Shown in pieces: positions 25,141 through 54,712 of a stretch of DNA of 64,000 nt. The stretch's first letter is position 1. Each line of letters opens with the position of its first letter. The stretch is taken from assembly GCA_963971425.1 (NCBI GenBank), contig OZ020519.1, forward strand, positions 2,124,028-2,188,027, given 5' to 3'. The notes under the pieces were generated by a model that searched no databases, had not been told where the DNA came from, and was given only the letters and a program-made list of their open reading frames with translations. This stretch comes from Bryoerythrophyllum caledonicum. Taxonomy: Eukaryota > Streptophyta > Bryopsida > Pottiales > Pottiaceae. The translations under genes were made by a program, and so were the position numbers.

Positions 25141-26949
25141 AGAACCTCTAGCTTGTAAAGAGGTGTGCGGCCGCATACCTCGTGACATCACAATTTCAAG
25201 GACTCTTCAAGAACGGTGTGACCTGAGCCAACAGCCAACAACCCTCACCTTCAAGATCTAAGGTTGGCGACCCTCATCGTCCAGGAGCGAGTACACCTAC
25301 GCCAAACACCTCCTTGCACACGCCGGACCTCCTTCTGACCTACGGTGAGAGATTAGAGACCGGTGAGGGAATGTGACATGCGCTAAGACAAATAAGAGCA
25401 CACCGAGATCGGTGAGGGAGATCCGACTTGCGCCGAGTGAGATCAGTTCGCGCCGAAGAAGATCTGACCTGCGCCAAGATCGGTGAGGGTTGAACACTTG
25501 TGCTATGACAGAGGTTGAACATTGGTCTCGCGTCCTAGGTTGAGTTGCTTCGAACTGGAGTTGCTTCGACCTCTGTTCAACCTTCTGCACACACTCGAGT
25601 TTACTTCTGCACACACTCATCTTGTCACTTTGAATTGGAGTGTGTGCAGAAGGAAGCAACTTCAGCGCAAGGGCGTGTTCAATCTTCTGCACAAACTTCG
25701 ACCTGTGTTCAACCTGAGCTGTGTTTAACCTGATCCTCTACAGCACGATTTTCTGCAACGCGATCGCGCCAAGATACATGCGAAACTCATGCTGCAACGC
25801 GATCCCCTATACACACTTGTCACTCTACACACACTCATCACTGAAAGTAAATCACCGCTCACTTCGGAGGGAGAGACTTGCATTGAGCGGGAAATTGGAG
25901 CGGAATAAGCGAAATGGGGTTGTAAAAAGAGTTTGCACTAGGAATTGGGGTGTGTGGCTGTGGACCTCCAGGGAGGCATTCGTAATGACCGCCGAAGAGA
26001 AGGATATCACCGTGTGATATCCTTCAAATACTCTACCCTACACCAACCCTAGTTGATATGTAGGACTTGCACATTGACCTATATATCGACATCAAGATCC
26101 AAGTGCTGGTGGAGGCCATCTAAGGGTTGTGGGTCGCAGCAACGCGATGCTTACGGCGTTAGAAGTTCTCACCTGGAAGAATTTCATTAAGGTACATACA
26201 ATTTGTGATGGAGGGTATTGTGCAACTGCAGGAGAGGTTTAATTCAACGTCAGCCTTCTTATTAATGTCCATGATTAAATTTCTAATGAATGGCACCGAT
26301 CACGGAAGTACTAGGGTTGAGGCGATGCTTGTGTTCTTTTGGCTTGGTGGTTTACCTTCTAACCTTTTCATGTTTAATGTGATTTAAGCCTACATATCAT
26401 AGTGTTACATGTGTCACAAGAGTTGTTCATTGAGCCAATTACAATGTAAGTTGTAGTTTCTTTTAACTTTTTAACTTCAGTTGCAAATTGTATATAGAAG
26501 CCCATATTTTACCCTGTAGAATACAAAATTTTGATTATGGTTTAGCAAGACTAACACCTTCGTATTAAAGATTCTTTTACTAAGAGCTTTTATTTGGAGG
26601 TCATTTTAATATGTGAACCATATCATGTTCAAATACAACATCAGACATGGTCAATAATATGGTCACCACTGGCACCTTCTATGGTGTAAGGATTAATCTT
26701 CAATATTTATATTTGTGTGTTTTCACACCTTTGGATTGAAGATTTATCAACTAAGATCAGGGTTGTCATACTGGACGGACGTTCAGCTCGTCCGTCCGTC
26801 CGATTCGCCCGTCCGATACAGTCAACAAAGGGTTGACTTACCTGCAAGGTTAAAAACAGGCGACGTGGCAGCTACGTATGAACTAAAGTGATGCCACGCA
26901 GGATTTAAACTAAAAAAATGAATAGTTGACTACATAAAATAATATATTG

Positions 26950-28240
26950 GCCGCAAGGACGTGTCCCCCCCCTAAATGGTAGGGGCGGAGACGTCACCAC
27001 CCCTCCCCGCCCAATTTTGGAATCAGGATCTTTGAACGGCCATATCTCACTCAAACATAGTCCAAATTAAGCGAGTGATATGTTTTTTGGCATCTACGAA
27101 AAATTTAGATGTCAAAACACACCTCAAACGCTTAATTTGAGCTATTTTTAAGTGAGTTATGCCCATTCAAACAGTCTGACTCCAAATTTAGACGGGGAAG
27201 GGGCGGGGACGTTAGAGGCGGGGACGTCTCCGCCCCTACCATTTAGGGGTGGAGACGTCCCCGCCCCTCCCCGCCCAATTTTGGAATCAGGATCTTTGAA
27301 TGGCCATATCTCACTCAAAAATAGTCCAAATTAAGCATATGAGATGTTTTTTGGCATCTACGGAAAATTTAGATGTCAAATCACACCTCAAACGCTTAAT
27401 TTGGGCTGTTTTTGAGTGAATTGTGCCCATTCAAACATTCTAACTTCAAATTTAGGCAAGGAAGGGGCGGGGACGTTAGGGGCGGGGACGTGAGGGCGAG
27501 GATTCAACCCTTTGAAGGTTGTAGAGGAACAAAGTTGGGCAAACTCCATTCTTGCCTTGGCAAAGGTCTTCTTCCTTCCCATGCGTTAGAGAAACGATAT
27601 TTTTAATGTAAATTTAGTTTTCCTTCCAACTTCTAGGGAATGACATGATTGCCGTGATGATTGGGAAATGCAAAGATCTTATCGGAACCAAATATAGCAG
27701 CTTTTTGTTCTAAATGATTCTATTGGACTTGAATTAGGAGATGAAGAAGAACTACGGTCTTCCAATGGGACCGGCGTGAATGTAGTGTTTGTTCATTCTC
27801 TTCACTAAGCATATGGCCACGGGACATAGGCTAGTGTATAAAGAACTATTTTCCCCTCTCGAGGGTAAACACTTTTCTACACTAAGTGCTTCCCTACACT
27901 AATTGCATTAAAGATAACCGACATGTCATCTCCCCCAAGGGCTTTGTGGGTCCCCATACAACGAGGCCGTGGGATCTCCCACCATAATTGGGTGGACTAT
28001 GGTGGTACTTGAATTAGAATGTTGTATTACGTCATAAACAACAAATTCTTTTTGACATTTTCAAAGAAGGTAATATTCTTTGCACAAGTGAAACCTCCTT
28101 TATTATCGACGGACAAATACCATTGAGCAATGTAGTTTTAATGTAAAGATGTGTTCTTAAATGACTCATCTTGAGGTCATATTCAAATTTATGAAGCATA
28201 ATGTCGAATCATCCAATGTCCATATATCCCTTGTGTAACA
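26950..28240 (+). repeat. hAT internal inverted repeat, left arm
   Basis: Pairs with about 29520-30860; a base at x matches about 57753 minus x over much of the arm. Matching is near-perfect over 27.5-28.2 kb. The outer part holds two ~270-bp direct repeats beginning CCCCGCCCAATTTTGGAATC, separated by GGGGCGGGGACGT words. Confidence 0.8.
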
Positions 28241-29519
28241 ACCTTTAAACTTTACTTTACAAAGGAATTACGCAACTTAACTTTACAAACGAATTATTTA
28301 AACATGCAATGAGAGAGAAATATATATATATCCCCAAACATAAGGGCTCGTGTAAACTTCTAACCACGGAGGAAATGTACAAGTTACCCAACAATAAATT
28401 GTTGCATGAGTGCCCCACAATAAATACCCCCTTTTTATCCATTGAGAAACAGTGAGAACCTAAATCAGTATAATCTACCATTCAAATTTTGTACCTATTT
28501 TTTCCATGATATTTTGTACGTATCAATTACATAGTTCGTTGACATTATATCTATTTATAAATTACTTATAACCATATTTCACACTTTTAAAGCAATGTAT
28601 GTTTCATGTACTTTCTTTATAAAATTTATCCTAAGTGAATATATTTGCCCCTATTTATTTATCGTACGTCGTTTCTACAATTTATGCAAGTGGCCCCTTC
28701 GAGTTTACTTTTTTTCCCAACTTCCCCAAAAAGTGTGAACGTGCTCTACTTGGGTTTAAATGTATTTTAACAACAAAGAAAATACTTTGTTTTTGGAATT
28801 TTAGAAGAAGGTAATACGCTTTATATATAAGTATTCTACAATTGAATCCAATGTTAAGAAGGGGCATGGAAAGATAAACAAAAAAGTTAAGGAACATATA
28901 AATAGTTTGCACGTGTTAGAGGAAATGTAATAGTTTCCATTTGAACACAAAGAAATTGACATTCCCAATATATAAATACGGCATATGTATAGTACATCAC
29001 AACGTCAAAATTATATTTATTTAGGAAAAGAATTTCATGCAAACCATACAAAGTTCTATCATTATTGTATATAGACATGAGTTCAAGAAAGAAGTTAATA
29101 GTTATGTCCTATATTGCTAGAAATTTTACTAGAGCTTCTATTGACATTTATATTTTTTGTACATCTATATGTATACTAAAAAACATTTGGTCGTGTGTCT
29201 CTCCCCTACATCCATAGCTTTTACAATAGACATGTTTAATGTGACCTTTTGAAGGTGTCACCCTTAGTTGCAAAGCCTTTTGGAGTTTCATCTAACCTTT
29301 GCAAGGTTTAATCAATTTAAAGTTAAATTGATACCATATAGTAAGAAGTGTTGTGAGAGAACCACTTCGACTTTGGAACATTGTGGCCTTTAGAGAATGC
29401 TTTTATTTGCATCATCTTTCTTTATGATTGAATAAAGCGATAAATAATTAAAACCTCAACAATTTAAAGATAGATATTTCATCGACCCTACGGTTATGAA
29501 GAGTAATTCGTGGATTGTT

Positions 29520-30860
29520 CCAAAGGGGTTGTTACACATTGGATGATTCGACATTATGCTTCATAAATTTGAATATGACCTCAAGATGAGTCATTTAAGA
29601 ACACATCTTTACATTAAAACTACATTGCTCAATGGTATTTGTCCGTCGATAATAAAGGAGGTTTCACTTGTGCAAAGAATATTACCTTCTTTGAAAATGT
29701 CAAAAAGAATTTGTTGTTTATGACGTAATACAACATTCTAATTCAAGTACCACCATAGTCCACCCAATTATGGTGGGAGATCCCACGGCCTCGTTGTATG
29801 GGGACCCACAAAGCCCTTGGGGGAGATGACATGTCGGTTATCTTTAATGCAATTAGTGTAGGGAAGCACTTAGTGTGGAAAAGTGTTTATCCTCGAGAGG
29901 GGAAAATAGTTCTTTATACACTAGCCTATGTCCCGTGGCCATATGCTTAGTGAAGAGAATGAACAAACACTACATTCACGCCGGTCCCATTGGAAGACCG
30001 TAGTTCTTCTTCTTCTCCTAATTCAAGTCCAATAGAATCATTTAGAACAAAAAGCTGCTATATTTGGTTCCGATAAGATCTTTGCATTTCCCAATCATCA
30101 CGGCAATCATGTCATTCCCTAGAAGTTGGAAGGAAAACTAAATTTACATTAAAAATATCGTTTCTCTAACGCATGGGAAGGAAGAAGACCTTTGCCAAGG
30201 CAAGAATGGAGTTTGCCCAACTTTGTTCCTCTACAACCTTCAAAGGGTTGAGTCCTCGCCCTCACGTCCCCGCCCCTAACGTCCCCGCCCCTAACGTCCC
30301 CGCCCCTTCCTTGCCTAAATTTGAAGTTAGAATGTTTGAATGGGCATAACTCACTCAAAAACAGCCCAAATTAAGCGTTTGAGGTGTGATTTGACATCTA
30401 AATTTTCCGTAGATGCCAAAAAACATCTCATACGCTTCATTTAGACTATTTTTGAGTGAGATATGGCCTCTCAAAGATCCTGATTCCAAAATTGGGCGGG
30501 GAGGGGCGGTGACGTCTCCGCCCCTGCCATTTAGGGGCGGGGACGTCTCCGCCCCTACCATTTTGGGGCGGAGACGTCCCCGCCCCTAACGTCCCCGCCC
30601 CTTCCCTGCCTAAATTTGGAGTTAGAATGTTTGAATGGGCATAACTCACTCAAAAACAATCCAAATTAAGCATTTGAGGTGTGATTTGACATTTAAATTT
30701 TCCGTAGATGCCAAAAAACATCTCATATGCTTAATTTGGACTATTTTTGAGTGAAATATGGCCATTCAAAGATCCTGATTCCAAAATTGGGCGGGGAGGA
30801 GCGGGGACGTCTCTGCCCCTGCCATTTAGGGGCGGAGACGTCCCCGCCCTAGTGCCACGG
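29520..30860 (-). repeat. hAT internal inverted repeat, right arm
   Basis: Reverse-complement partner of 26950-28240 with a few indels, including an extra GTCCCCGCCCCTAAC unit near 30.28-30.30 kb and a 15-bp difference at the inner end (CATATATCCCTTGTG is present on the left only). Confidence 0.8.
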
Positions 30861-31329
30861 TGGCGTGACACGTCTGTATGTGACGTGGCGATCACAATAT
30901 AAATTTGTTATGTACAAAAAATGACTGGGCGCACTTCAGGCAATCCGTCTGAACCGTCCGTCCGTGTCGTCCGGACCGCCCGTCCGGTTGTCCCGTCCGA
31001 TAACCTCAACCCGTCGGTTATGACAACCCTGACTAAGATCTTTCATTTACAGGTCATTTTTTGTGGAGGTCATCTTTCATTTGGAGGTCATATCAATTGG
31101 AACTCATCTTTCATTTTGAGGTCATTTCATCTAGAAGCCATCTTTTATTTGGGGGTCATCTTTTATTTGGAGGTAATTTCATTTGAGGTAATTTCATTTG
31201 GAGGTCATTTTATTTGGAGGTCATTTAACTTTGAAGTTATTTCATTTATATATTAATTCACTTGAAGGGCATATACACCAACTTGTAGAGTTAGAAAATG
31301 ATACGGTTACAAAAAATTGAAGTTATTAC

Positions 31330-31960
31330 CATGCCATTTTAAAACCAAAAACACTTCAAAACTACTCGTCTTAGTCCAATGAGTAAGGAAGAAAATCAAA
31401 GGTTATATTTATAGTTTTAACTGTAGGATCTCAATTAAGATCTATTAACTACCACAGACACGAAACTTCAAAGACTTTGACCGCACGGATTGAAAGATTA
31501 TAGTGTTTGAAGTACAGGAAGGGTTCATTTTCTTCACTGCGTTAAGTGGATCAGCAAACTTTGACTTCACTTGGTGTCCAATTTTTGCACTACACAAGGT
31601 CTAAATTCATTCTCACCATGTTAAGCATGATATGTGTACCTTGTACACCAATTTTTAGAGGTAAATAAAAGGTGCAGCGTATTCAAGAAAATTGTGCAAG
31701 GACTGGAGGTTCAAAAGTTGATAATTCATGTTTTAATTTTTTGTGATCTTAACATGTTTTAGAATGATAATCCAAATGGTCAATAAGAAGGTTTACACCA
31801 CATAATGCCGTGGAAAAAATAAAAAGTAAACAATGTGAAAATCATAAAGTTTTATGTAGAAAGGAAGAACAATTTTTGGTACATTGCTCAACAATGTGCG
31901 ACAATGTGCAACAATGTGTCAAAATGTTTGATTTGAATTAATATGCTAATTTCTTATAAT
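31330..31960 (-). repeat. TTAA-family copy, minus orientation, ends eroded
   Basis: Reverse complement is collinear with 21.1-21.65 and 23.1-23.7 kb: CATTTGGATTATCATTCTAA, ACCTCTAAAAATTGGTGT, CTGATCCACTTAACG and TCTTTCAATCCGTGCGG. It lies just right of the hAT element and just left of the ParB-like relic. Confidence 0.65.
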
Positions 31961-32059
31961 CTTTAAGATAAAAAACTATACAAACAAGAATAAATTTTAC
32001 ACCATACTAACAATTACTATTGTATGGTAATGTCATTCAGGTTTTTAGAGTGTGGCATT

Positions 32060-35000
32060 ATGGCACCTAATATTGACAAGGACTGGGAGAGCCACGGTTG
32101 GAGGATTGCGGAAGTGGAGCTGTTTAAGCCATTCTTGTAGGTGACAATTTATTCCTTTGAGCTAACAAAGCGTTCATCAGGATTGGAGAGACGTTGCGGC
32201 AAAATCCAAGCAATCTTTGGCCGACCTGATGATATGGTATATGTGAGGTTGGTATCAGATCCTGATACAACAACGGTGAAGTTTTCTCTTTCTAAGAAGT
32301 TGCTTCTAGCACGTGTCCCTGTAAGTCTCATCCAGAATCCAAGACAAGTGAAATTACTCAAATCACTACAGACATTTTGGGTAAGCATACATCCTACGGT
32401 ACGTACTGCTGGACACAATAATGTTTTGGCAAGTTTGGCGTTATCACTGGAGATGGTGCTACAAGCAAAGAAGATTATGAATGAGCATATTAGATATGAG
32501 GCATTACGGATAGCAGATCCAACAAGTGCAGCAGGTGAAGTTCTACCTGAAGAGACAGAACCAATTTGTTGTGTTATTACACGTCCACCGCAAATGGATT
32601 GGCAACATGTAAGGGAGAGGCGTAGGCGTGGGGACCAACAGTCTACCGCATCCATTGATATGCCTACATCACCTCATCCTCCACTACGAAGGGAACGTCT
32701 TTCAAAGCGGCCACGACGGGATCAGAGGGATGTAAGTTCTGGAACCGGTGGAGGCTCTTTAGGTTTGGATGCAAGAGGTACAAGGTTGATAGGGAGAGCT
32801 TTAGGATTGGGTGGCAGGGTTCCAAGGTTGAGACTCAGAGCGTCTACATCTCATCGTAGGATCCCTACATCTACCTTGGGAGATACTATAAATTTGTCGC
32901 CCGTGACTCAGGAGGAAGAAGAGTTCCCAATCTCGAAAACGACCCCGCAGAGGATTTAGAGGAAGAAAGACAGATGCCAAATTATATTCCAACTTCACAT
33001 ACATACAAAGTTCCAGTGTCTACAGTGGAGGAGATTTTGAAAGGATCGTTGTGGGGGAACATTGTGTTTAACGCATATGTAGATCGCATTGTCTCAGTGG
33101 AAAATCCAGAAACAAACCATCGAGTTTTATCACAGAAGAGGGCTACAAATGTGTATAGCCGCTTCAGAGATCCAGAGTTCAGAATCCGGGTGAGCAGATT
33201 GGTACTTTGACCGATCAGATACATTTTGCATACTACTACCGACGACGGTACGATTTCACAGGAAGAGGTGCCGTTTTCAAATGAAGGGGCAGCACGAGAG
33301 TTTAAACGCGTTTTCCTTACACATGGGAGTGCTTCTGTAAATGGTGGTGTAGGATCTCAGTTGGCTTGGTTTGAAGACCATATTATTTGGGAGCCAGTGG
33401 ATGGACAACATATAGTCGCAGCTTGCAAATTTGACAAGAATAGTGGAGGAATGATAAGATCCCGACAACTGAGTACCTCGAGTTTTTTGAGCGGCGGGAG
33501 GCAACCTTCGTGTTATATGATGATCGCCGTTTTTACATTGATAAGTCGGTGCGGATCAACGTAGCGGAGTGGGAGAGAACATCATATTCCACCGTGGAAG
33601 AGGATTTAAAGAAGCTCCGCCAGATTTTGGTTCTATATGGGAGGCCCAATAGCTTGGTCTGTGGAAATGATGCACGCAGAGGCATTGCTTTGGTGAGTGC
33701 CGCAAGCGCAGTGCATAAGTTGCACAATATAGATGATGGTAATGAAGTTACGATTAAGAAGCTGGCCAAGAACATGCAGGACCTGACCCGTCATGCCTGG
33801 AATCCGAGCGATGATTGTTTTGATGCTATCATTCGCGTCTGCAAAGACTACGAAGATGGACTTATTTTCTACAGCAAGAAGGAAGAAACAAAGTGGAAGC
33901 ACTATGCACAGAAGAAAGAGCTCGATTCCAATGTGGATGTGCAGCTGAAACAAAAGGTGATGACTCAGAATTGGTTGAGGCCGCTCAGCTGGATTCCAGA
34001 TTCATATTATCTACAGCTGATACGATCATGTGCAGCTAAGCCGTTGGGGATAAATGGGCGTAGAACTAGCCAAGAGTATTATTTCAATGGTGTAGACGAC
34101 AAGATTCTACAACGCCGCACCATTGCCTTTGTGGTTGATCGGTTGGAGAGAGAAGCGGTGATGAATATCATCCGTTGGTTGATGGTGGACAACAAAGAAT
34201 TTGCACCAAGTTCTATGGAGGAGTTCTTTTGCATATCCGTACTGCAGTATTTTCCAAAGGGCAAGGGACAACTTTATACTTTGGCAAAGCATTTGGATGC
34301 TCCTACAAAAACGGCATGGATTGCTCCTGTACGAGAGAAGGTGTCTAAGGTGGAAGACATAGTCCATCTCATCCCTCCTTCCATCAAATATCATTATCAT
34401 AATGTTGCAGCAGGGGGACGTGGATACAATGGTTTATTTGTGGATGTGGGAGATTTTAGCACTGCTAGTTGGGAATGGCAAATGCAAGTTCAAAAGCCAG
34501 GTCATGATGATCCACAGAACTCTCTTATGGTTCGGTTTAGAAGAGGGTTATTTCATTCAGATCAAGTACAATTGGGAAAACCATGCTTGTGGGTGATTGA
34601 TTGTCGGCGTAGCGGTGGGAGGCATGGAGATGCTCCATGGGATGATGAGCAATTATGTAGAGTGTTTGCACAACTTGCATTATGGATGGCAAACATTGAA
34701 CGACGGAACATCATCTTTTTATTACCATCGGCCGAGTACACCAATGAAGAGTTGTTCGCGTAGTTAAAGCTTTCTAAGGGTTGTTCTATGCGGCATGGAA
34801 TTTGGGCATTTGATCCCAACTCGGTTGATCCATAGGCTCTCGATTTTACATAGAGCGGGCGCTTGCAGCAAATGGTACAACCAATTGGAGCTATTGTGAT
34901 TTACATGCAGCATTCTATTGGTACTTCCCTTAGCCCCAACTATGTTTTTGGGGATTGTCCACTTCCACTTGTACTTTAGGATTTATGGAGTGATGCATGC

Positions 35001-35981
35001 ATGCCTTCTGAAGCTGATAATCTGGAGAGATCTTCAACGGAGCTATCTAGGCTCGTGGGTCCGTACTTGCCTCAAGGTTGGGATTTAGTGGCATGAGGAA
35101 TTTCTACGGCCATTCCTACGATCCTTCAAGGGAATTTCCAAGGATCTCAGATCATTGTCATAGACGATTGCACGGAGAGGGCTAGATTCCTAGACAATAA
35201 ATTATGCAACAATTTCCAAGGACAAATGTTGATCACTGAGATGACAGGTGGAACAAATGTGGCTCCTAACATCGCACAAGAGACCGAAGAGGCGATTGGT
35301 GGAGACATGCAAGAGAACGATGACGCCGACGAAGGAACTTTGAATGAGAGGTTGCCACGTTCACCTGTATCAGAATATTATTCGTCTGACAATAGCTCGA
35401 CCGATGACGATTCAAGCACCAATGAAGAAGTGGATAAGTCTCCTGCAAGGGAGATGATTCCATCAACGCAGCCAACGGTGGGAGACACTTTGAGAGAGAT
35501 GTCAGGGACACCTATGGAGAGGATGGAAGAGATTGGTATAGTGGATAGTTTGGTGGCAATGGGAAGAGAGGCAAATACATTAGCTTCTCAAAGACTTGAG
35601 GTAGAGCAAGAAGTATCCGATTCGCTTGAATTTTTCACAGTGCAGATGAGGGTTTGGCAGCCTTCGGGGTCTTCTCAAGTACAAATTAAATCAGAGACAC
35701 AAGAGAGGGTTGTAGGTACTGGAAGTGATACGCGACCAATATTGACTTCCGTTCCAAGATCTGGCGTATCGGAGGATGTCAGTGCATTTTAGGGGGCTTT
35801 TTTCTTAGACCGAGAGATGTTGTTTAAGGATGGCTTCTACTATAATGATGATGGTGTAAGACACACGCAACATGGTGAGCCTGGCAGTTACAAATATGTT
35901 GAGTCTGCGTCCATAAGTCTTGGAGATACGATAGATCATCCGGTGCAGATTGTCGTGCACAAACACATCGTGCAAAGATAA
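32060..35981 (+). pseudogene. Decayed ~1300-codon gene: ParB/Srx-like VDGQH region plus possible methyltransferase-like domain
   Basis: I do not recognise the full gene. ATG 32060 opens a frame with TAG 32138 and continues to about 32950. A frameshift leads to 32974-33450 (TGA 33208), and a second shift near 33455 leads to one frame until TAA 35979. That last part is broken by TAG 34761, 34833, 34851, 34977, TGA 35094 and TAG 35790. Seen: an N-terminal region with FGRPDDMVYVRLVSDPD and a basic RRERLSKRPRR tail; then WEPVDGQHIVAACKF followed by TFVLYDDRRFYIDKSVRINVAEW. This resembles the DGxHR signature and distal strand of ParB/sulfiredoxin domains. Further on come CLWVIDCRRSGG..DAPWDDEQL and NIIFLLPSAEYT, with spacing like a Rossmann methyltransferase, then an acidic Ser-rich tail. 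The domain calls are inference. No transposon ends were found around it. Confidence 0.5.
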
Positions 35982-36410
35982 CATCGTGCCAACAGGTGAG
36001 AGCGCACAATTAGAGGCAAACTTGGAGCAATGGAGACTATACTATCACCGTTGCCTCTGTAAACAACGAAAACAATAGTTCACAAAAGAAACTATCAACC
36101 TCCAGCAACCTAGGCTAGGGAAAAAGAAATAAATACCAAGACCACAACATTTAGTAATTGGTCTACAAGGACCCCTTTACTCGCCCCCTTCGCCCGTGCT
36201 GAAGCCCCTTTCACACCGGCGAATAACACAACTAACGTAAACTAGAGGAACGACCGAGCATAAAAACCTCTCAAGTCCAGAAAAATCAAGGTGACCTATA
36301 GAAAAGACACTAACAGATTGTGTAGACAAAGGATAGGCCGGGTGCAATGAGAGCCCCATCGTTAATCGCCTCCAATACTTTTACTGGCTAGACCTTGTCT
36401 ACATAGACTC
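35982..36410. other. Between ParB-like relic and gypsy PHD end
   Basis: No gene. On minus this is where the gypsy polypurine tract and 3' LTR should lie; GAAGGGGGCGAG and AAAGGGG runs occur near 36.17-36.22 kb. I could not match any part to sequence beyond 61.3 kb, so no LTR is called. Confidence 0.4.
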
Positions 36411-36689
36411 TCAATGTGCTAAACAATTTGGACATGACCATTGACCCACTGGTACCTCTAGAAGAGGTGGGGTTAGACACTCTAGATGCCACCCCGTAGA
36501 ACACAAGTCACAAATGACCATTGTGGCTGCCCGTTTGGCACTACCACACAATTGACATCGCAATCCAGTAGAGATGTGAGAAATACCAGGGTTTACCGTG
36601 CCATCAATGTGTGGTAAATGGCAAGGAGTGCAATTGTGCGTATGATCCTTCCATATTTTACCATCACGACCCTCCAATAGTAATACTCC
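36411..36689 (-). CDS. Gypsy polyprotein C-terminal extension with PHD finger
   Basis: In frame with pol after a single TAA (36690-36692). Reads GRDGKIWKDHTHNCTPCHLPHI and then a complete C4-H-C3 PHD finger: CQLC, CDLC, WHLEC and CPNC. PHD fingers read histone H3 tails in known proteins. Fused behind an integrase, one could steer insertion to chromatin; that role is inference. The TAA may be a CAA change that truncates the finger from pol. Confidence 0.8.
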   Translation of the reverse strand, partial: GVLLLEGRDGKIWKDHTHNCTPCHLPHIDGTVNPGISHISTGLRCQLCGSAKRAATMVICDLCSTGWHLECLTPPLLEVPVGQWSCPNCLAH

Positions 36690-39545
36690 TTAGTTTTTCA
36701 CCTCACGAACTCGCAAGATCACCCGTCCCGCTGTCACATCCAAGGTGGTGAGCGTTGCTTGCTGTAAATACATATAGTCTCCAGGAGTAAACCGTCGCAC
36801 TTGCGGTCGGTAGCCTCCTCCCCGTATTATAGCATAACGCAACGTATCCCGATGTTGAGCAATGGAGAGATTCTCCAATGCCCTAGGCATCACCCGTTTA
36901 AACAAATCCGCACGTTGCTCACATACTTGAGTCCACGTATCTAGATTGTCCATGTTAGCCAACACGGTGTCAGCATCTTCCTCAATGGCCTTTGGTAACA
37001 CCGGTTGCCTTCCAAACAACAAGAAGTAAGGAGAAAATGACGCCAAAGATGCTTGCTTGCTAAACCGGTAGCCCATGGCTATCCACGGTAATTGCCAGTC
37101 CCAATCTTGATGATGTCCCTTCTTCAAACTATACTTCTGAAGCCCCTTCTTGACGGTTTGCACCATGCGCTCCGCCAATCCATCCGCTTCGGGGTGATCC
37201 CTTGAAGTAGTGCGGTGATCTATCATCGCTTGCTCACAGAACATTTGAAAGTCACCCAAGAATTCCCTTCCTTGGTCTGTGAGAACTTCCGCTGGAGCTC
37301 CAAAGCAACTCAAAACACGATCAAGAAAAGAGTAAGCAGCCCCCTCACTAAATTTGTTAGGCAACGCCACCAACTCTATCCATTTCGAGAAGTGCTCGAT
37401 CATCACCAACACATACTTGTTGTGTCGAGGTGTCACTGACAATGGACCAGCAAAATCTAAGCTCCACATATATCCCAAGCTCGTAATTGGCAATGGTTGC
37501 AATTGTGGCATTGGAGCATTAAAAGATGCTCGCACACGATCACAAACCATACACCGGGCTACCAAGGCTTGAACTTGAGTTTGCATTTTTCGCCACCAAT
37601 AGTGAAGCTGGAGCAAGCTAGAAGTCCTCTGCACTCCAAAGTGCCCAAGGTCTTCATGCGTGTCCTTGATGAGCTTCACTCTCTCCAATGGAGTTGGGAC
37701 AACCTTCCGCGTGCCATCCGGCCACACCCTCAATAGGTGAGTCCTCTCCCACACGAACCGTTTGGCTCGTTGTGAGATCCGATCTCTCTCCTTAGTGGAC
37801 CACATAGGCACCATTTCTCTATTCTTCAAAAAGTGCATCACGTTCGTGTCTTCAAAGATATCTTTGGCGCCCCCAGATTCTTCACCGCCATCCTCATCTA
37901 TCGTGGCCACAGTAGATGCTCCGGTGTCATCTCCACTTATCGCCAATACACTTATAAAGGCCGAACAATGCCAATCTGGCAACGAATCGGCTTCATCCTC
38001 CCCGTGCCACCTAGCACCCGTAGCATCCGCTTCGTTTGGAATTGGATTGCGGCTAAGGCCGTCGGCATCCATGTTCACCAATCCCGCTATGTGCACCACC
38101 TTGAAGTCGTATTCCATCAACATCAAGGCCCACCGTGCTAGCTTGCCTGTTAGTTTGTTAGACTCCATCAACCACTTTAAAGGTTGATGATCCGTGACTA
38201 ACAAGAACTCATTACCATAAAGGTAACATCGAAAATGAGCAATTGCCCACATGGCAACCAAACACTCCCCTTCATACGAGCTATACTGAGCCTCCGCATT
38301 ATTGTTGGACCGGTTGGCGTATGCAATGACAAACTCCTTCTCGTCGTCATCCATTTGCGTCAACACCGCACCAATTCTCAATGCACTCCAATCTGTGTGT
38401 AGCTGATATGTCCTTCCGGCTATTGGCCTTCGAAGTATAGGTGCCGATGCCAAGCGGTCCTTCAACTCTTGAAAGGCCACCTCTTGCTCATCTCCACATA
38501 TCCAAGGTTGATCATTCCTTGTCAACATGGTTAATGGCTTGGCAATAGCACTGAAAGTCTTCACAAACTTTCTATAGTAATTATACAACCCCAAGAATGC
38601 ACGTAGCCTACTAATATCCCTTGGTCTAGGAATAGACATCACTACTTCAATTTTACTAGCTACCATACCCAATCCACTTGGATATATCATGTGGCCTAAG
38701 TACTCGATGCGGTCAAAGTAGAATTTGCACTTACCAGGGTGCAACTTCAAACCGTGGAACCTCAATCTAGCAAACACTTCCATCAAGTGTAGCCTATGTT
38801 GCCTTCGATTCGTGCTAAAGACAACGATGTCGTCAATGTAGCATCTCACGAAATCCAAGCCCGAGAATACTCGGTCCATAACCCTCTGGAACTCGGCAGG
38901 CGCATTCTTCAATCCAAATGGTAAGAATTTCCATTGGAACAACCGGTCCTTCCCATCTTTGTCAATGCCCCAGAATGCGGTCTTCTCCATGTCTTTCTCT
39001 CTCCGTCCAATCTGGTAGTATCCAGAGCGCAAGTCCAACGTACTAAATACCTTGGCGTGACCAATAGCCTCAAAGTTCTCCTCCGGCGTTGGCATTGCAT
39101 AACGATCCGACTTGGTGAATTTATTAATCCTCCTATAGTCCCCGTACATCCTCTTCTTGGTCCAATTACCATAGATATCTTTCTTGGATGGCATAACCGT
39201 CGTCAATGCATACTCGCAATCCGGTGGAGCCAACTCCACTAGCCCCGCAACCACCAACTCCTCCGTACGAGCGTGTATCATCCTCCGTTCAACGTCGCTA
39301 TACTTATACAGCTTCCGGTATATTAGTCCTTTGTCCGTCAAGTTGATATGTACTTCTTGCCTCTTCAATACTCCAAGATCTTCAAGATTAAAGGTAAAAC
39401 AATCTAAGTACTCCCTGAGGAACTCATGTTCCTCTCTCTCAACTGCTCCATCAGTTAGGCCTACCATCGGTTTCCAAGTATCCTTGGTCACCGCTGTCGT
39501 GTAGAGAGTCTTTGCTTCGGGAAAACCCAGGGTTCTTGGCTGCAC
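36690..39545 (-). CDS. Ty3/gypsy pol: reverse transcriptase, RNase H, integrase
   Basis: 951 codons without a stop. RT: TVMPSKKDIYGNWTKKRMYGDYR, FSTLDLRSGYYQI, FLPFGLKNAPAEFQRVMD and the catalytic CYIDDIVVFS. RNase H: LHTDWSALRIGAVLTQ, SSYEGECLVAMWA and LVTDHQPLKWL. Integrase: zinc-binding H..H..C..C (THEDLGHFG.., CMVC), SLDFAGP (D), LTDQGREF (D) and AERMVQ (E). There is no chromodomain; a PHD finger follows. The frame begins right after a TAA at 39546 with no ATG, and no aspartic protease (DTGA/DSGA) precedes RT, so the 5' side is truncated. The matching gag is probably that at 58.7-61.3 kb, same strand, placed upstream. Only long undamaged transposon frame in the window. Confidence 0.92.
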   Translation of the reverse strand: MQPRTLGFPEAKTLYTTAVTKDTWKPMVGLTDGAVEREEHEFLREYLDCFTFNLEDLGVLKRQEVHINLTDKGLIYRKLYKYSDVERRMIHARTEELVVAGLVELAPPDCEYALTTVMPSKKDIYGNWTKKRMYGDYRRINKFTKSDRYAMPTPEENFEAIGHAKVFSTLDLRSGYYQIGRREKDMEKTAFWGIDKDGKDRLFQWKFLPFGLKNAPAEFQRVMDRVFSGLDFVRCYIDDIVVFSTNRRQHRLHLMEVFARLRFHGLKLHPGKCKFYFDRIEYLGHMIYPSGLGMVASKIEVVMSIPRPRDISRLRAFLGLYNYYRKFVKTFSAIAKPLTMLTRNDQPWICGDEQEVAFQELKDRLASAPILRRPIAGRTYQLHTDWSALRIGAVLTQMDDDEKEFVIAYANRSNNNAEAQYSSYEGECLVAMWAIAHFRCYLYGNEFLLVTDHQPLKWLMESNKLTGKLARWALMLMEYDFKVVHIAGLVNMDADGLSRNPIPNEADATGARWHGEDEADSLPDWHCSAFISVLAISGDDTGASTVATIDEDGGEESGGAKDIFEDTNVMHFLKNREMVPMWSTKERDRISQRAKRFVWERTHLLRVWPDGTRKVVPTPLERVKLIKDTHEDLGHFGVQRTSSLLQLHYWWRKMQTQVQALVARCMVCDRVRASFNAPMPQLQPLPITSLGYMWSLDFAGPLSVTPRHNKYVLVMIEHFSKWIELVALPNKFSEGAAYSFLDRVLSCFGAPAEVLTDQGREFLGDFQMFCEQAMIDHRTTSRDHPEADGLAERMVQTVKKGLQKYSLKKGHHQDWDWQLPWIAMGYRFSKQASLASFSPYFLLFGRQPVLPKAIEEDADTVLANMDNLDTWTQVCEQRADLFKRVMPRALENLSIAQHRDTLRYAIIRGGGYRPQVRRFTPGDYMYLQQATLTTLDVTAGRVILRVREVKN

Positions 39546-41599
39546 TTAGTTTAGAGAGGGAAAGGGAGAATATAGAACATATGATTTGTGTCCAAGTCCA
39601 TATAAACTTATAAGTTCTCATTCACCATATCAGAAAGGCCTCCGATCTTCAACTTGTATAATAAAACTCGATGTATATATAATAAGACATGATGCAGATG
39701 TCTTGTAGAACTTGTCTCTCAAAAACTTAACTAAAAACATTAATTATCCTTAACCTAAATCAAGCCTTAATCAAACTCTGATTAAATTAACTAATTCCAT
39801 TTAATAATAATTAATTAATAGTTGAGATAATTATATTTAACTAAAATGATTAACCTTGATTAATCCACTTAATTTTAGTTAAGCTAATTGATTACAATTA
39901 GACTAGTTAATCTTACTTAACACAATTAACCTTGATTAAGATAATTAATTCCCTAATTAACCTCAATCCCACATACCCTTACCCTTATTTACCCTAACCA
40001 CTTCATACCCTTCTCCTATATACCCTTACTCCCTTTGAAATCATTTATCTAACCTCTCATTAAGTATTAAACCGAACTCAAACTCTCCTTTAAACTCTTG
40101 GTTAACCTTCTAATTCAAAATACCACTACGGTTTCATACAAACTCGAAATGAGACGTGCTATAGCTACTTGAAAAGCCACTAAAATATACCACGTACACA
40201 CCAAATTTCACTTCCAGAAACTCATCTGGACAGCCGCTATGTGCAATCAAAGTTACTTCTTATAAAAACTCAAGTCAGCTGACCCCTCTTCTTTCAAATT
40301 AGTGCTATGACTTCACAAAAGCTCGAAATAGAGCATAAAATAGCTCTTTGGAAAGCTATTTACAGTGTTTAAACACTCACCAAAGATGTCATTTAGATAT
40401 ACTTTGTACAACTCGCTACAAGGCTTCAAACCTATTGCTCATGAAAACATGGGGCAGCAGACCCCCTTGTGTTCGACAAGGCGCCGTTCACTCATACTTT
40501 TAGCTCTAAGACCGAGTGATAGCTTCATAGAGAGCTAACAACAAGGGCTACAACATACTCAAAATCCAAAACAAATTATCACAAAAACAACCAGAGAGAG
40601 CCCCCGCAGTCCAGCCCCTCCTCGGTTAAGAAGAACTCAACCCCCAAAACGGGGAAAGGAGCCAATCACAACTAACCTCAGCCCATTCAAAGGCCACATG
40701 GGCATCTTAAACCCCATTGGTTGCTCAAATTCTCCCCCTTATCAACTCTTATCATCCCTCTATCCATTTTATTCTTTGTATTTTTAAACACTAACTACCT
40801 AGTCATCAATCTAAAGACCGGGTTTCTTCAACAACAACAACTAACTACAAATATATATTAAGAAAAATAACAACAAATGGTCTCAACTTCAGCCCCAAGA
40901 TGGATTAAACATGTAAAAAGTCAAGAATCTCACGAAGAACAACAACAATGTAACTTGCTCGCCTTTCACTACCCAAGTGTCTGAGCGGGCCTTGAAACCA
41001 AAGACGGTGACCAAGGTCATTGGACAAGCGGGTTACCATTTGACCTTCGTTAGTGTTTTGAAAACACCCTTCAAACACCACTTGATGGCCTTCGATAAGC
41101 ACATCTCCAAACTCCAAGATGATTACTAAAGTTCTTGCCTCCGGTTGTAAACTTCTTAAACTTGTCAAAGGAACTTGTTGAGGATCAAAACCGGTACGTG
41201 GTTGAACACGACGCTCAGAAGGCCCTGCTTCCTCTCGCTCACGCCGCCTTGATGTGGATGATTGAGAAAGTTGAATTAGATCATCCGGTGAGTGAGCTAA
41301 AGGAAACTCCCAATCATCAGGGTCTTGAGAAGCCATACTATCAACCTATAGAAACTAAGAAGAAACAATCCAAAGTAATAATGACCTGAAGTAATGCATA
41401 AGGCACGGCAACCATCTACCTTTTATATGTTTTTCGATAACTTCATCAAGAAGCTTGCCTTCCCTAACATTAACTCAATGACATTTTTTTAATAGTAAAC
41501 GGTTAAACAAATTTAAGTAGCCATAGATGCCTTTCCATCTAAATGAAGGTCCACAGTAAAGCCAGATTAAGAAACAAACGACTTATCTGTAGCAGTATA
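39546..41599. other. Spacer between gypsy pol and CACTA complex; one unknown ORF
   Basis: AT-rich (39.7-40.0 kb is dominated by TTAATTA words), then GC-balanced. A minus frame 41336-40905 (143 codons, true ATG) has an acidic Ser/Arg-rich start (MASQDPDDWEFPLAHS) and a hydrophobic second half (IVVVLREILDFL). I do not recognise it; it could be an accessory or gag-like exon of a retroelement. Confidence 0.4.
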
Positions 41600-41940
41600 A
41601 GACTATTGCGGGCTCGATGATAATCGCCAAGTTGCAGACTTGGTTGGCTGTTAGAGCCCGTTTGTTATCCGCCGACTGATTCCGAGTTCGAGTCTCATTG
41701 AACTCGTTGAACTATTCGGGCGGCTGCGGCTTGGCACTTGCTAGTGAGAGTAGGAAAATAAGCAGCCAACTGGCCACCTACCTACCCCTGAGCTAGAGAC
41801 AAGAGATGCAATACATCCAAGCTAGACTAACAAGCTCTAAATGTTCCCACATTGAATTATACTGTAGGCCACTCTACGACCACACTTTTTGTATCTATAT
41901 TATCTTTTTACATAGTGTAGTAATTTACAACACGACACCG
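41600..41940 (+). repeat. Possible tRNA-derived SINE
   Basis: The head has a tRNA-like arrangement: TTGGTTGGCTGTTAGAGC (A-box-like) and GAGTTCGAGTCTC (B-box-like) about 30 bp apart. The 3' part (41772-41940) recurs in reverse orientation at 48040-48208 and 51421-51589 without the tRNA-like head, as expected for 5'-truncated SINE copies. No poly-A tail is obvious. It could instead be a terminal repeat of a DNA transposon. Confidence 0.4.
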
Positions 41941-42161
41941 CTACCCTTACCAAAATTGTCACGGCGGTCAGCGCAGACGTATAAACGTCATTCGAGAGCA
42001 CCACACGAGAGTCGGTAGACATCCTTATTTATCGTTTTCCATGATAGGTGGGGATCCTCCCGCTGGATATCTAGAGGACGGTATCTGGGTCCAGGACATT
42101 GCATATGACGATGACGTTGTAGAGCAGGCACCAGACATTGGCGCTTCTGATGTCCTGCCGG

Positions 42162-45100
42162 ACATCGCCGACGACATCTCCGGACATAATCATGTTACAG
42201 AGGACGTTACTGCATTGGATGAGAATCACGACGTCCAGCGCCAGGTCATGAAGGCCCTCGACCGTGGTGATGCACTGCATAGGGATGCAGAGGGGCAGCA
42301 ACACTTGGAAGAGGATGACGACATTGATAGCGATACGGTGGATGGCCTCCAGCAATTGTATGAGGAAGCCACCACACCGCTGTATGCAGGATCCAGAACC
42401 AGCATTGTTTCCGCTACAATCGTCATCATGAACATGTGTGTTGTTTTTGAAGTGAGCAATACGTTCACCAGTGAGTTGTTGCAGTATTTGGCAGAGGATT
42501 TGCTCCCTGTAGGCAACAAGCTGCCCAATAGTCATTACGCCGCATCGAAGACCATTCGAAGGTTGGGATTGAACTACAACAACATCCATGCATGTCCTGA
42601 TGGTTGTGTCCTCTATGAGGATGAACATGCGGAGTTGCAGACATGCCCAAAGTGTTCCAAGTCCCGATGGTTGGAGGGCACTAACTCCATCCCAGCCAAG
42701 GTGATTAGGCACTTTCCTCTCATTCCCTGCTTGAAACGGATGTGGCGATCACCAGAAATTGCGGGGATGTTGACAGGTCACACAAAGCACGTTGGTGTCA
42801 ACGGCGTGATGCGATCCGTGATTGACAGCCCAGCATGGAAACACATCAACACGGATGTTGCGTTTGACGGCTTTGGACGTGAGGACCGCAACATGCGTCT
42901 TGCTTTAGCACTGGATGGTGTCAATCCTTTCAAGTTGAGCAACACAAATTGGTCTACGTGGCCACTGGCCAATGCTGGTCTTAGTCTACAATTTGGAGCC
43001 TTGGTTTGTGACGAAGAAGTTCTTCATATCCATGTACATATTGATATCGGGGAAGCGTTCCCCAACTGCAACAAACATCGACGTGTTTGTGCGCCCGGTG
43101 TTGAAGGAGCTACACCAACTTTGGCAAGGAGTCGCCGCACAGGATTTTACCCAACCCGTGGGATCTCGACGCTTCAATCTACGTGGATTGCTGACGTGGA
43201 CCATTTCGGATTTCCCTGCACACGGCCTAATCTGAGGCCTATGCTGTAAGGGATATAAAGGATGTCTTGAATGTGGCCCGGAGACAAATGCACGGATGGC
43301 AAAGACAGGGGATACGCGTCCCGACCGTAGGATACAAGGTTCGAAGATAGTGTATGGACGAGCACGTCGGTACCTTGCTCGTCACCATCCGTACCGTAGG
43401 AACACTAGGTTCAATAGGAAGCGTGAGAACCGGACAGCGCCTCGAATCATGTCAGGTGCAGACGTCATCCGTTACGCAACGTGGCGGCAGTCATACTTAG
43501 ATCTTGGTGGCAGGGAAGGATCTCCAAGTGACCCTGTGCACTACACGGGAGTCAAACGTCTTAGCGCATTCTTCGAACTTCCGTACTGGCAAGTGAACAC
43601 TTCGTATATGCTGGCTGTTGGAACAAATACCGGATGCATTGTGTCAATGTTGCTGTCATGGTAGACATCGCAGCGTTACTTGTGATGTCTATGTCGTTAT
43701 GGAAGATGTTCTTGCAGACATACTTCAAGACATCCTCAGCAGCAGAGGGATGTTTCTAGAACCGCGTGGCAATGTTCTTAGAAACGTACATGAAATATTA
43801 CAAATCTAATCAACATGCATGGTTCATTCTAATAGCATCTCAAGGTTCGACACGTACTAGACGTCATGCATTGGAAGAAAAATCTATGCGAGAACATTCT
43901 GAAGACATTGTTTGGAATGAACGACAGCCCAGGAAGTCGTCAAGATGTGGAGGACTTGAACATACGTGAGGAGATATGGCTGCAGCCCCCCCCGGACGCC
44001 GAGGTGACGAATACTACATGCCACAGACACCATACATACTTAAGCCTGAGGAGAAGCGAGAGTTTGTGCACATTGTTTCCAGCATCTGCACTCCCACAAA
44101 CACTAGTACAAAACAGGGAAAAAAAAACCGCACTCGATTCGGAGTTGAGGTTCGTTTGACCACAATGTCGGAACAGTCAGCATTGTTCCTAAATCGGGCT
44201 GTCCCGGGTTTTTTGGCCATAACTCTTTCATGTTTGGGAGTTTTTGGACGTGTAATACACCGTTGAAAGCGCCTTAAAAACACGCTTCCAAAGGTATATT
44301 ACACGTCCAAAAAATTCCAAAAATAAGGGAGTTATAGCCAAAAAACCCAGGACAACCCGATATAGGAACAGTGTTGACTGTTCCGACAGCGTGGTCAAAC
44401 GAACCGTAACTCCAGTTCGAGTGCGGTTTTTTTTTCCCTGTTTTGTACAAGTGAAACTACGTGGGAGCAATTCACAAGCGGTTGCAGGACGGAAAGCTGC
44501 AATACATGAAGACACACGACTATCATGTCCTCATGCAACAGGTATGGGTACTACTCTTAAATTACCTTCAGTCAGAATACACTTATTTGTAAGAGCTACA
44601 GTGCATTGCATGGGAACTGTGAATGTCTGTTTTTGAGGATTCTCTTGTATGGACCCTTTCTTGTAAGCCATGTCTTGCAAAACATGTGGACGTTGAATTG
44701 GAGTCTGGACACAAACAAATGTTCTGCAAGACACGATGATGTTTTCTATGACATTTCAATGTTTGGCCAGACAATGCTCATGTCTGTTGAGACATACGCA
44801 GCGTAGGAGCCCAGAGGTGATCGCAGCCATGATTATTTCCACCTTCTTGTATTTTTGTTTTCAGAAGTCGAACATGATGATTGTACTACCTCCTGTAGAT
44901 TCTCCCGGTGGCTGTTCGGAACTTGCCGGACGAAGAGGTGCGCGTAGCTATCATCAAAATGTGCAGAGTCTTCCAGCGTATATGTGAGAAAGAGGTACGG
45001 GAAGACGCCCTCGATGCTCTCATGCGGGACGTGGTAATCGCAACGTGTGTGCTAGAGAAGGAGTTTCCGCCCACATTCCTGAACGTGATGGCTCATCTTC

Positions 45101-45186
45101 CCGTGCATCTCGTGGAACAACTGTTCATATGCGGACCGGTGCATTGCAGGTGGATGTATCCAATTGAGAGATACATGAAGACGCTG
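42162..45186 (+). repeat. 3025-bp inverted repeat, left arm
   Basis: Base x equals the complement of 96795 minus x throughout every stretch I compared (partner 51609-54633). It includes the frameshift, the MITE and all flanking words. Homology breaks sharply at ACATCGCCGACGA on the outside and at GAAGACGCTG on the inside. Confidence 0.92.
44101..44453 (+). mobile_element. CACTA-type foldback MITE, copy 1
   Basis: 353 bp with ends CACTAGTACAAAACAGGG and CCCTGTTTTGTACAAGTG, flanked by the 3-bp duplication AAA (44098-44100, 44454-44456). The whole element folds on itself: nearly all of the left half pairs with the right half, including the GGACGTGTAATA / TATTACACGTCC apex. Removing it with one AAA joins CTPTN to YVGAIHKRL in frame, so it landed in an exon of the transposase. 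Confidence 0.92.
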
Positions 45187-46599
45187 AAAGATTACGTACG
45201 GACGAACGTACATCGAGAAGGAAGTATAGCAGAAGGCTATAGACTAGAGGACACGCTTGGGTTCTGCATAGAGTACATGCAGCGGCATACAGCGACAACC
45301 CACCGTGTATGGGACCCGAACGAGGACGCCATTATGAACGACGAGATATTGAGGCTGAATGAACACACGAAGAGAAGAATGTCCGATGAGGTCCGCGGCC
45401 ATGCACACGCATTCGTAATTGACAACGCACCTTGCTTGGAGCCGTGGCGAGAGTGAGTTCCTCTCTAAGCACTTTCTGATGTTCTTCTTGATATCATTCA
45501 TATGCATCAAAATAGGAGACTCGTGAACGTTACATGCCTGTCCATGCTGACATTGTACATAATATTGTAGAATTTTGGAGGATGTATAGATGATGGACGT
45601 GCACATGTCATTTGCAACGTCCACATGAGCAGGCGGATGTCACTGGAGACGTCTTCGGGGATAAATCCCAACGTCACAGGTGCACTACGTGATTACCGTA
45701 CATGTCTGATGTCTAAGAACAGAGGTGGATGTGTTGTTCAGGGAATACACAACGAAGGGACGCAGATGGGAAGAGCGAGAGGCATTTCAAGTACTATCAC
45801 GACGTCGTCGACCTTCTAGACCGGTGACATACCCACCCGAACTGAGTGATTTGCCAAGCTTTGCTGATTGGCTGAAGGCGCGGGTGCAGGCAGCAGAGTA
45901 GGTTGGAGTTCTCTTGGACCAGGACGTGATATAGTATTCATGTCCGCCGAAGCGTTATGCAACCTCCCACCGACAAATGTATGCATTTGGGATGCATTTG
46001 CGTGTTAGGACTTCCGAAGGAGGCCTTGTAACTCGGGACTCATGTGTGGTGGCCACCTATATATAGCAATTGCGTTGGGGGATTCGCAATGGGAGGCCCA
46101 TTGACCATACTACCGAGTATGTCGGGTACATCAAGGAGATACTGGAATTGGATTACCGCAATCACTGTACAACGATGTTGCTATGCGAGTGGATTAAAGC
46201 GTCACGGGATGTGCGAGTTCCTAGCATTGAACGTGACAAGTACGGATTCAGCGTGGCAAACTTCAACCACATGGACAACAGAGTACATGCGGATTCCTTG
46301 GCATTCCCCTTGCATTGTCAGCAGGTGTTTTTCTGCGATGTCCCTACGAGACTCGGGTGGAAGATTATTTGCAGAACAGAAGTTAGAGAGAGGCGAAACA
46401 CACCCCATCATCAACATCTAGTGGCCAACGCTATCGCTGTTGGTGATGACGAGGACTTCCAGGGCTTGCAACCGCCGATTTTGGAAACGGACCCAATTCG
46501 GAGAGTTGCTACGACGGGAGGGAGATATGTCGTAACCGGAACAGAAACCAACAACCAAGTTGAGACTGAGGAGGAGTAGTGATTTTTGGACATTTTGCT

Positions 46600-48039: not shown

Positions 48040-48208
48040 CGGTGTCGTGTTGTAAACTACTACACTATGTAAAAAGATAATATAGATACAAAAAGTGTGG
48101 TCGTAGGGTGACCTACAGTTTAATTCAATGTGGGAACATTTGGAGCTTGTTAGCCTAGCTTGGATGTACAACATCTCTTGTCTCTAGCTCAGCGGTAGGT
48201 AGGTGGCC
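48040..48208 (-). repeat. Truncated copy of the SINE-like repeat
   Basis: Reverse complement of 41772-41940 with roughly one difference in ten bases. Shared words are AAGCTCCAAATGTTCCCACA and TACAACACGACACCG. Confidence 0.65.
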
Positions 48209-48332
48209 ATACAGGTTTCATGTATTGCAGCGTCTTCATGTATCTCTCAATTGGATACATCCACCTGCAATGCACCGGTCCGCATATGAACAGTTGTTCC
48301 ACGAGATGCACGGGAAGATGAGCCATCACGTT

Positions 48333-54633: not shown

Positions 54634-54712
54634 GGGTCTTGACCGTCGCAGAGTTTGGGTGTACAGGTCCGTTGTTGTTGTTTATCATTGACTCTCATGT
54701 TCTAACGATGTT

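What the first reader, a model, noticed from the sequence alone, without database searches (positions are those of the whole stretch)
32060..35981. Large relic joining a ParB/Srx-like module to a methyltransferase-like region
WEPVDGQHIVAACKF followed by a strand-rich DDRRFYIDKSVRIN segment recalls ParB/sulfiredoxin nucleic-acid enzymes. The downstream VIDCRR..DAPWDDE..IIFLLP pattern recalls amino-methyltransferases but lacks DPPW. ParB-like plus methylase fusions are known from phages and bacteria. In a plant TE landscape this would be a novel transposon-borne or virus-derived gene.
Basis: inference. Interest (0 to 1): 0.78.

Follow-up and report, generated by a model that had tools for sequence, protein, structure and literature searches.

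The report
Unnamed transposon gene, split by retrotransposon
This is a decayed copy of a large gene that a mobile element carries in many copies in a plant-like genome; the protein matches no described family, and the suggested kinship to ParB and methyltransferases did not hold up in tests.

Summary
From ATG 32060 to 35950 (+) lies one long broken coding region with both quoted blocks. Bases 35951-35981 are the end of a Ty3 retrotransposon that split the gene near its 3' end; the gene's last ~30 codons follow the Ty3 outside the window (L149). The genome search scored 96 copies of 1139 candidates; 32 of 96 have open frames of 1317-1371 codons without stops in the match. Two copy groups differ with dN/dS 0.15-0.19, so the protein is under purifying selection. 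137 related proteins were listed, all unnamed. No match reached a curated Pfam or NCBIfam cut-off. hhalign against phage ParB-methylase fusions stayed within decoys. GxxR and DPPW are absent from the motifs read; GQHI and DCRR stand there instead. Two copies share a right end (...TGCATG), as does this one; a matching inverted end lies at window 16055, beside a DUF7869 gene on the other strand. Best reading: accessory gene of a two-gene inverted-repeat DNA transposon. The left half rests on this one locus; the genome searches meant to confirm it did not complete.

The parts
32060..35950 (+). decayed copy of the large gene (intact copies examined: 1332-1334 codons from this ATG); the last ~30 codons lie beyond the Ty3, outside the window (L149 from ~475)
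   Evidence: frames; copies; ORFs; right flank
32060..32560 (+). N-terminal conserved block (MAPNIDKDWESHGW...NEHIRYEA)
   Evidence: P0022 and intact copies share it; dN/dS 0.12 for L138 against L140
32560..32960 (+). basic, low-complexity linker with RERLSKRPRRDQRD (NLS-like is my label, from no call)
   Evidence: dN/dS 0.50
32980..33580 (+).
   Evidence: dN/dS 0.23
33580..34440 (+). middle block, mostly helical in a low-confidence model; the most constrained part
   Evidence: model; dN/dS 0.04
34470..35250 (+).
   Evidence: dN/dS 0.15
35250..35950 (+). acidic tail and C-terminal motif FKDGFYYNDDGVRHTQHGEPGSYKYVES, cut by the Ty3
   Evidence: tail dN/dS 0.43, C-motif 0.22
31037..32059 (+). 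upstream part of the same element, shared with the C8 and C11 copies
   Evidence: these match window 31032/31038-35948 at about 92%
25945..26758 (+). further upstream part of the element (matched pieces 25945-26049 and 26485-26758)
26759..31031 (.). sequence absent at this place from the two copies compared: inserted later (contains 97% inverted arms 28000-28232 / 29523-29755 and GC-rich tandem repeats)
35951..64000 (-). Ty3 retrotransposon inserted in the gene (LTR end at 35951; gag 60.5-58.7k, pol 39.5-36.7k, PHD finger 36.7-36.4k; CACTA-type sequence nested about 41.7-55.4k); runs on to L149 about 474; 4-bp repeat AGAT on both sides
16055..16071 (+). proposed left end: CATGCAATTAAGCAATT, inverted copy of the right end
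   Evidence: one match, 0.02 expected; 17 leading bases identical; not checked in a second copy
16559..19736 (-). broken DUF7869 protein gene, proposed transposase partner
   Evidence: PF25273 E=1.1e-21 and 2.4e-17 in two pieces, three other pieces without match; frames

Best explanation
The finding is an old copy of a gene belonging to a high-copy DNA transposon. The gene encodes a protein of about 1,333 residues: conserved N-terminal block, basic linker, 'GQHI' block, helical middle, alpha/beta-looking 'IDCRR' block, acidic tail and a short C-terminal motif. I propose that the transposon has terminal inverted repeats and two genes pointing outward: a DUF7869 protein (left, minus strand) acting as transposase, and this protein (right, plus strand) acting in the nucleus as an accessory factor that binds the element's DNA ends and assembles or regulates the transposition complex, as TNPA does for CACTA elements (recalled). 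Shown: repetition, intact copies, a common right end, purifying selection, decay of this copy and its splitting by a Ty3. Inferred: the left end, the DUF7869 partnership, nuclear location, DNA binding and accessory role.
For: Copies on many contigs; L139, L143 and L144 are 99.5-99.9% identical to L138 over 4.3 kb. The C8 and C11 copies are 98.8% alike over 6.5 kb and then part at the same point after ...TGCATAATTGCTTAATTGCATG; the window copy has the same end in L149. The inverted end occurs once in the window, at 16055, with 17 identical leading bases. A DUF7869 gene lies just inside it. dN/dS is 0.15-0.19 between copy groups, lower in the blocks (0.04-0.23) than in linker and tail (0.50, 0.43).
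Against: Left end and DUF7869 gene were seen in one locus only. Target-site duplications of the element are not clear: the bases outside the right ends are TTAA, TTCA and TTCA, those outside the left end GTAA. Beyond the first 17 bases the two ends are only loosely alike; 5 of 2000 random window 100-mers reached the observed score, and how many of these overlapped the site itself was not checked. The element's length between the two ends in an intact copy is unknown. Nothing directly shows DNA binding or a role in transposition.
Confidence: 0.5

Rival explanations
1. The 1,333-residue protein is itself the transposase or recombinase of a one-gene element, in a fold too divergent to be recognised; the DUF7869 gene belongs to a neighbouring transposon.
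For: Only the right element end is proven by several copies. DUF7869 and the left end are seen in one locus. The element reaches at least 2 kb upstream of the gene; that stretch was not examined for genes in the intact copies.
Against: No transposase family was matched by the protein or its relatives. The 17-base inverted end lies beside the DUF7869 gene in the right orientation.
Confidence: 0.2
2. ParB/sulfiredoxin-like module fused to a methyltransferase that has lost catalysis, captured from prokaryotes by a plant transposon and used to bind DNA.
For: By eye: VDGQHIVAAC resembles ParB/Srx box II; the IDCRR block shows strand-helix alternation in the order of beta-class methylases, ending SPSEL..LVxxYLPxGWGLVA...GSxIIVID.C.ERV (low-confidence models; alignments). 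ParB fused to N6/N4 methylases is frequent in phages (PMC12704722, passages seen; L030 shows one).
Against: hhalign of three parts and of two motif blocks lies within decoys. Of 72 proteins with a readable GQ motif none has the GxxR arginine; of 17 with a readable LWxxDC motif 15 read DCRR and none DPPW (both patterns presuppose GQ or DC). No Pfam, NCBIfam, PHROG or PDB match to either family.
Confidence: 0.13
3. An anti-silencing or other regulatory protein of the transposon (as VANC for VANDAL elements, recalled) rather than a part of the cut-and-paste machinery.
For: Large basic/acidic protein without recognised enzyme motifs; high copy number with near-identical copies.
Against: No direct evidence; similarity to VANC was not tested.
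Confidence: 0.1
4. An antisense gene inside the Ty3 element (extra ORF between pol and the 3' LTR).
For: Gene and Ty3 lie back to back in the window, and in the C1 locus a Ty3 ends about 2.6 kb from a copy, in the same relative orientation.
Against: The Ty3 LTR ends at 35951 inside the gene, the gene resumes beyond the other LTR, and AGAT stands on both sides. The 10 kb downstream of the intact C8 copy match neither the window's nor the C1 Ty3.
Confidence: 0.03

Closest known systems
DUF7869 (PF25273) proteins
   Same: A DUF7869 gene lies between the proposed left end and this gene
   Different: No second gene of this kind is known to me for such proteins; the held paper library has no paper with the word DUF7869
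Plant DNA transposons with an accessory gene (CACTA TNPA, Mutator mudrB, VANDAL VANC; all recalled)
   Same: DNA element with inverted ends and a second gene without transposase motifs (proposed)
   Different: No family match ties this protein to them; a direct comparison was not made
Phage ParB-N6/N4 methylase fusions (L030; PHROG 498; PMC12704722)
   Same: Order of two blocks in one protein, by eye
   Different: No profile similarity above decoys, no GxxR, no DPPW/DPPY, eukaryotic mobile element
Ty3 retrotransposon with PHD finger after integrase
   Same: Physical neighbour in the window
   Different: A later insertion, not part of the gene's element

Membership tests
ParB/sulfiredoxin (ParB-CTPase fold) | profile match to a ParB or Srx family | tested here: not met
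   Pfam: 68 of 137 relatives and the 439-aa window piece singly, window pieces, intact L144 protein; PHROGs and NCBIfam on a few relatives and window pieces; hhalign within decoys. Weakness: Pfam's ParB model also missed the phage control L030, which PHROGs recognised
ParB/sulfiredoxin (ParB-CTPase fold) | GxxR nucleotide-binding arginine | tested here: not met
   0 of 72 readable motifs; 67 read DGQHI (the pattern presupposes GQ)
ParB/sulfiredoxin (ParB-CTPase fold) | the fold itself | tested here: inconclusive
   model pLDDT 43, 30 residues at 70-90; Foldseek best E 0.14 to an unrelated chain
beta-class amino-methyltransferase (N6_N4_Mtase, MT-A70) | catalytic motif IV DPPY/DPPW | tested here: not met
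   15 of 17 DCRR, 1 DCPR, 1 DCRQ (the pattern presupposes DC)
beta-class amino-methyltransferase (N6_N4_Mtase, MT-A70) | profile match or motif I (DPFxGSGTT) | tested here: not met
   no such family in Pfam, PHROGs or NCBIfam, where the control L030 gave N6_N4_Mtase at E 7.7e-38 (Pfam); motif blocks against 65 methylases score 14.4 and 13.1, best of 93 decoys each 19.4 and 16.0
beta-class amino-methyltransferase (N6_N4_Mtase, MT-A70) | Rossmann fold in beta-class order | tested here: inconclusive
   strand/helix order compatible, but model pLDDT 36; Foldseek best E 0.2 to an unrelated chain
two-gene DUF7869 TIR transposon | DUF7869 protein | tested here: met
   window 16.6-19.7k(-), E=1.1e-21 and 2.4e-17
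two-gene DUF7869 TIR transposon | matching inverted ends enclosing both genes | tested here: inconclusive
   one locus: 17 identical leading bases; second copies could not be examined (searches at 116, 119, 123, 124, 126, 128, 132, 135, 137, 139, 141, 143, 144 unanswered)
two-gene DUF7869 TIR transposon | target-site duplication at the element ends | tested here: inconclusive
   TTAA right against GTAA left in this old copy
Ty3 element with antisense ORF | gene lies between the LTRs | tested here: not met

The most novel reading that the evidence does not exclude
A new kind of plant DNA transposon whose second gene encodes a catalytically dead, ParB-like plus methyltransferase-like protein, recruited as a DNA-clamping or end-binding factor for transposition and kept in very high copy number.
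Probability: 0.1. Interest if true: 0.78.

Novelty: new variant of a known kind. Interest (0 to 1): 0.5.

Why it matters
A protein of about 1,333 residues, kept under purifying selection in an abundant mobile element with near-identical copies, falls in no family of the libraries searched. Naming it would annotate a large repeat family in this genome and the many unnamed metagenome and genome proteins found here. If it is an accessory factor of DUF7869 elements, it gives a concrete two-component system in which a poorly described group of presumed transposases could be tested.

Tried and rejected
Rejected: ParB/Srx and methyltransferase membership (profiles, motifs; structure inconclusive). 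Rejected: gene as part of the Ty3. Without support: viral or prokaryotic origin; no relatives in viral contigs or genome contigs, each scanned with two to six peptide patterns, and only two weak hits in phages (E 2 and 3). The repeat 31327-31953 first looked like an LTR or MITE end of the element; it is a dispersed repeat with many matches in 230 kb of genome that also lies inside the element. A helitron 3' end was considered for the palindrome TTATGCACTTGGCTAAGTGCATAA near the right end and set aside because the terminal bases recur inverted at 16055; it was not tested further. Paper searches that gave nothing on this gene: (listings seen).

Full report
OBSERVATION. The region 32060-35981 was read in all frames. 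Both quoted blocks are present on the plus strand. The pieces belong to one gene: frame 32060-32959, a frame change, 32860-33435, a second frame change, and 33444-35950. I count eight in-frame stops in all. No Pfam family reached its cut-off in any of the six gene pieces (one match, DUF6152 at E 0.067, 13.7 bits against a cut-off of 27).

RELATIVES. The 439-aa piece found 5 proteins, a profile of 6 sequences found 22, and a profile of 12 found 143 at E<=0.1, of which 120 were listed. In all 137 distinct proteins were listed; where a source gave a name it is 'hypothetical protein' (JGI), and ENA contigs reach 570 kb. They show that the two blocks belong to one protein (P0001, P0023, P0024), with an N-terminal block (P0022) and an acidic tail plus C-terminal motif (P0005, P0034).

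THE GENOME. The genome search answered once: the window is G000:C7:2124028-2188027, the genome has 437 Mb in 894 contigs, and 96 of 1139 candidates were scored, so counts are lower bounds. In that table 29 of 96 rows are 74-100% identical to the window piece and 67 of 96 are 65-68%; 32 of 96 have no stop inside the match and an open frame of at least 1300 codons (7 in the first group, 25 in the second). Against L138, the copies L139, L143 and L144 are 99.5-99.9% identical over 4.3 kb and L140, L141 and L142 about 96%. The four copies with a full frame (L138, L139, L140, L144) have 1332-1334 codons from the ATG homologous to 32060; L141 has 954, L142 286 and L143 436. Between the L138/L139/L144 group and L140/L141, dS is 0.11-0.12, dN 0.017-0.022, ratio 0.15-0.19; within groups the ratio is 0.12-0.35 on few changes (L142 and L143 were left out for their short frames). 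By block for L138 against L140, with simple uncorrected counts and block limits set by me: N-domain 0.12, basic linker 0.50, GQHI block 0.23, helical middle 0.04, IDCRR block 0.15, acidic tail 0.43, C-motif 0.22. The protein has been maintained and is not drifting.

ELEMENT EDGES. The C8 copy and the C11 copy are 98.8% alike over 6.5 kb, from at least 2 kb upstream of the ATG (the limit of what was fetched) to the same point about 540 bp after the stop, ending TTATGCACTTGGCTAAGTGCATAATTGCTTAATTGCATG, then TTCA in both, then different. Window pieces 25945-26049, 26485-26758 and 31032-35948 match this element; 26759-31031 is absent from both copies at this place. The right flank of the window (L149) shows the end of the Ty3 LTR at about 474, then the remaining ~30 codons (DNA 90% identical to the C8 copy) and the same right end at 1105. 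AGAT stands on both sides of the Ty3. So the Ty3, with CACTA-type sequence nested in it, split the gene near its 3' end. In the C1 locus a more distant copy (75% DNA identity to the C8 copy) lies about 2.6 kb from another Ty3, whereas the 10 kb downstream of the C8 copy match neither Ty3 by blastn; these 10 kb were not scanned for other transposase families.

LEFT END AND PARTNER. The right-end sequence recurs inverted at 16055-16075, with 2 mismatches in 21 where 0.02 matches are expected; its first 17 bases are identical. Just inside lies a broken minus-strand gene, 19736 to 16559, with DUF7869 (PF25273, E=1.1e-21 and 2.4e-17 in two of five pieces). If this is the left end, the element held, before insertions, a DUF7869 gene reading left and the present gene reading right. 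That is one locus only. Thirteen later genome searches meant to test it did not complete.

WHAT THE PROTEIN IS NOT. ParB and methylase relations were tested in several ways. Family libraries: no ParB, Srx or methylase family for the window pieces, for P0001-P0005, for the longer relatives, for the 68 relatives and one window piece of A5 scanned singly in Pfam, or for the intact 1334-aa protein. The best stray match was Beta_helix_2 on P0023 at E 0.002, 18.3 bits against a cut-off of 30. The phage control L030 gave N6_N4_Mtase at E 7.7e-38 in Pfam and ParB-like families in PHROGs (E 1.6e-13), but no ParB family in Pfam, so the Pfam negatives for ParB are weak evidence. PDB sequences: nothing meaningful (the best in 68, E 0.011, is the acidic tail against an acidic stretch). 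hhalign: three parts against 32 ORF clusters from phage and bacterial loci, of which the ParB-methylase cluster (60 of its 118 members used) scored 14.9, 17.0 and 15.8 while the best clusters scored 20.0, 20.5 and 21.1; the two motif blocks against 65 methylases scored 14.4 and 13.1, with the best of 93 decoys at 19.4 and 16.0. No positive control was run for hhalign. Structure: mean pLDDT 35.6 and 43.3, no Foldseek match at E<=0.1. Motifs: 67 DGQHI, 2 DGQHV, 1 DGQPI, 1 NGQHI, 1 DGQYI of 72; 15 DCRR, 1 DCPR, 1 DCRQ of 17 (the patterns presuppose GQ and DC). The eye does see a beta-class methylase order of strands and helices; I keep this as a minority reading.

HOW IT MOST LIKELY WORKS (inference). 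A two-component DNA transposon: the DUF7869 protein cuts and joins; the large protein, with a basic NLS-like linker and an acidic tail, binds the inverted ends and organises the complex. Its GQHI and DCRR blocks are then structural or DNA-binding, not catalytic.

KNOWN OR NEW. ParB-fold domains fused to methylases are reported from phages and, with MT-A70, from archaea, and the most common eukaryotic member of the fold is sulfiredoxin (PMC12704722; passages seen, the whole paper was not read). No paper in the held library contains DUF7869. Searches for ParB with transposon and methyltransferase terms and for plant or bryophyte elements were seen as listings only, and none of the titles listed describes this protein. 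The host is eukaryotic and plant-like (Transposase_21, DUF4218 and DUF4216; LSU_rRNA_eukarya piece); I suspect a moss, which is not shown.

Noticed in passing
window 36411-36689 (-): A PHD finger (PF00628, E 8.5e-11) follows the Ty3 integrase in the same frame after one stop; the second copy (L114 7665-7940) has it at 93% identity. Possibly a chromatin-targeting module in place of a chromodomain.
   Followed up: partly
window 42162-54633: Near-perfect hairpin: 42162-45189 equals 54633-51606 inverted (99.97%), and 45152-48332 equals 48533-51713 (100%) around a 200-N gap; likely an assembly artefact within CACTA-type sequence.
   Followed up: partly
window 47457-48043 and 50838-51424: A Ty3 piece that lies between gag and pol in L114 sits in the opposite orientation inside the hairpin region, again suggesting misassembly or rearrangement.
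   Followed up: no
window 31327-31953, 20818-21658, 22842-23714: Dispersed AT-rich repeat of about 0.9 kb with many matches in a 230-kb genome sample; one copy lies inside the element upstream of the gene, and the C8 element copy is flanked on its right by another.
   Followed up: partly
window 28000-28232 / 29523-29755: 97% inverted arms of 233 nt, 1.3 kb apart, within the 26759-31031 insert: a possible small transposon.
   Followed up: no
window 62835-62995 (-): 160-nt eukaryotic LSU rRNA fragment (Rfam, 90 bits) in the Ty3's upstream stretch, without match in the C1 locus.
   Followed up: no
L114/L135/L136 (C1:1030001-1056000): The Ty3 copy has a 367-bp LTR part at both ends, but a 229-bp LTR end on both sides of the 3' copy of that part: an odd LTR structure.
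   Followed up: no
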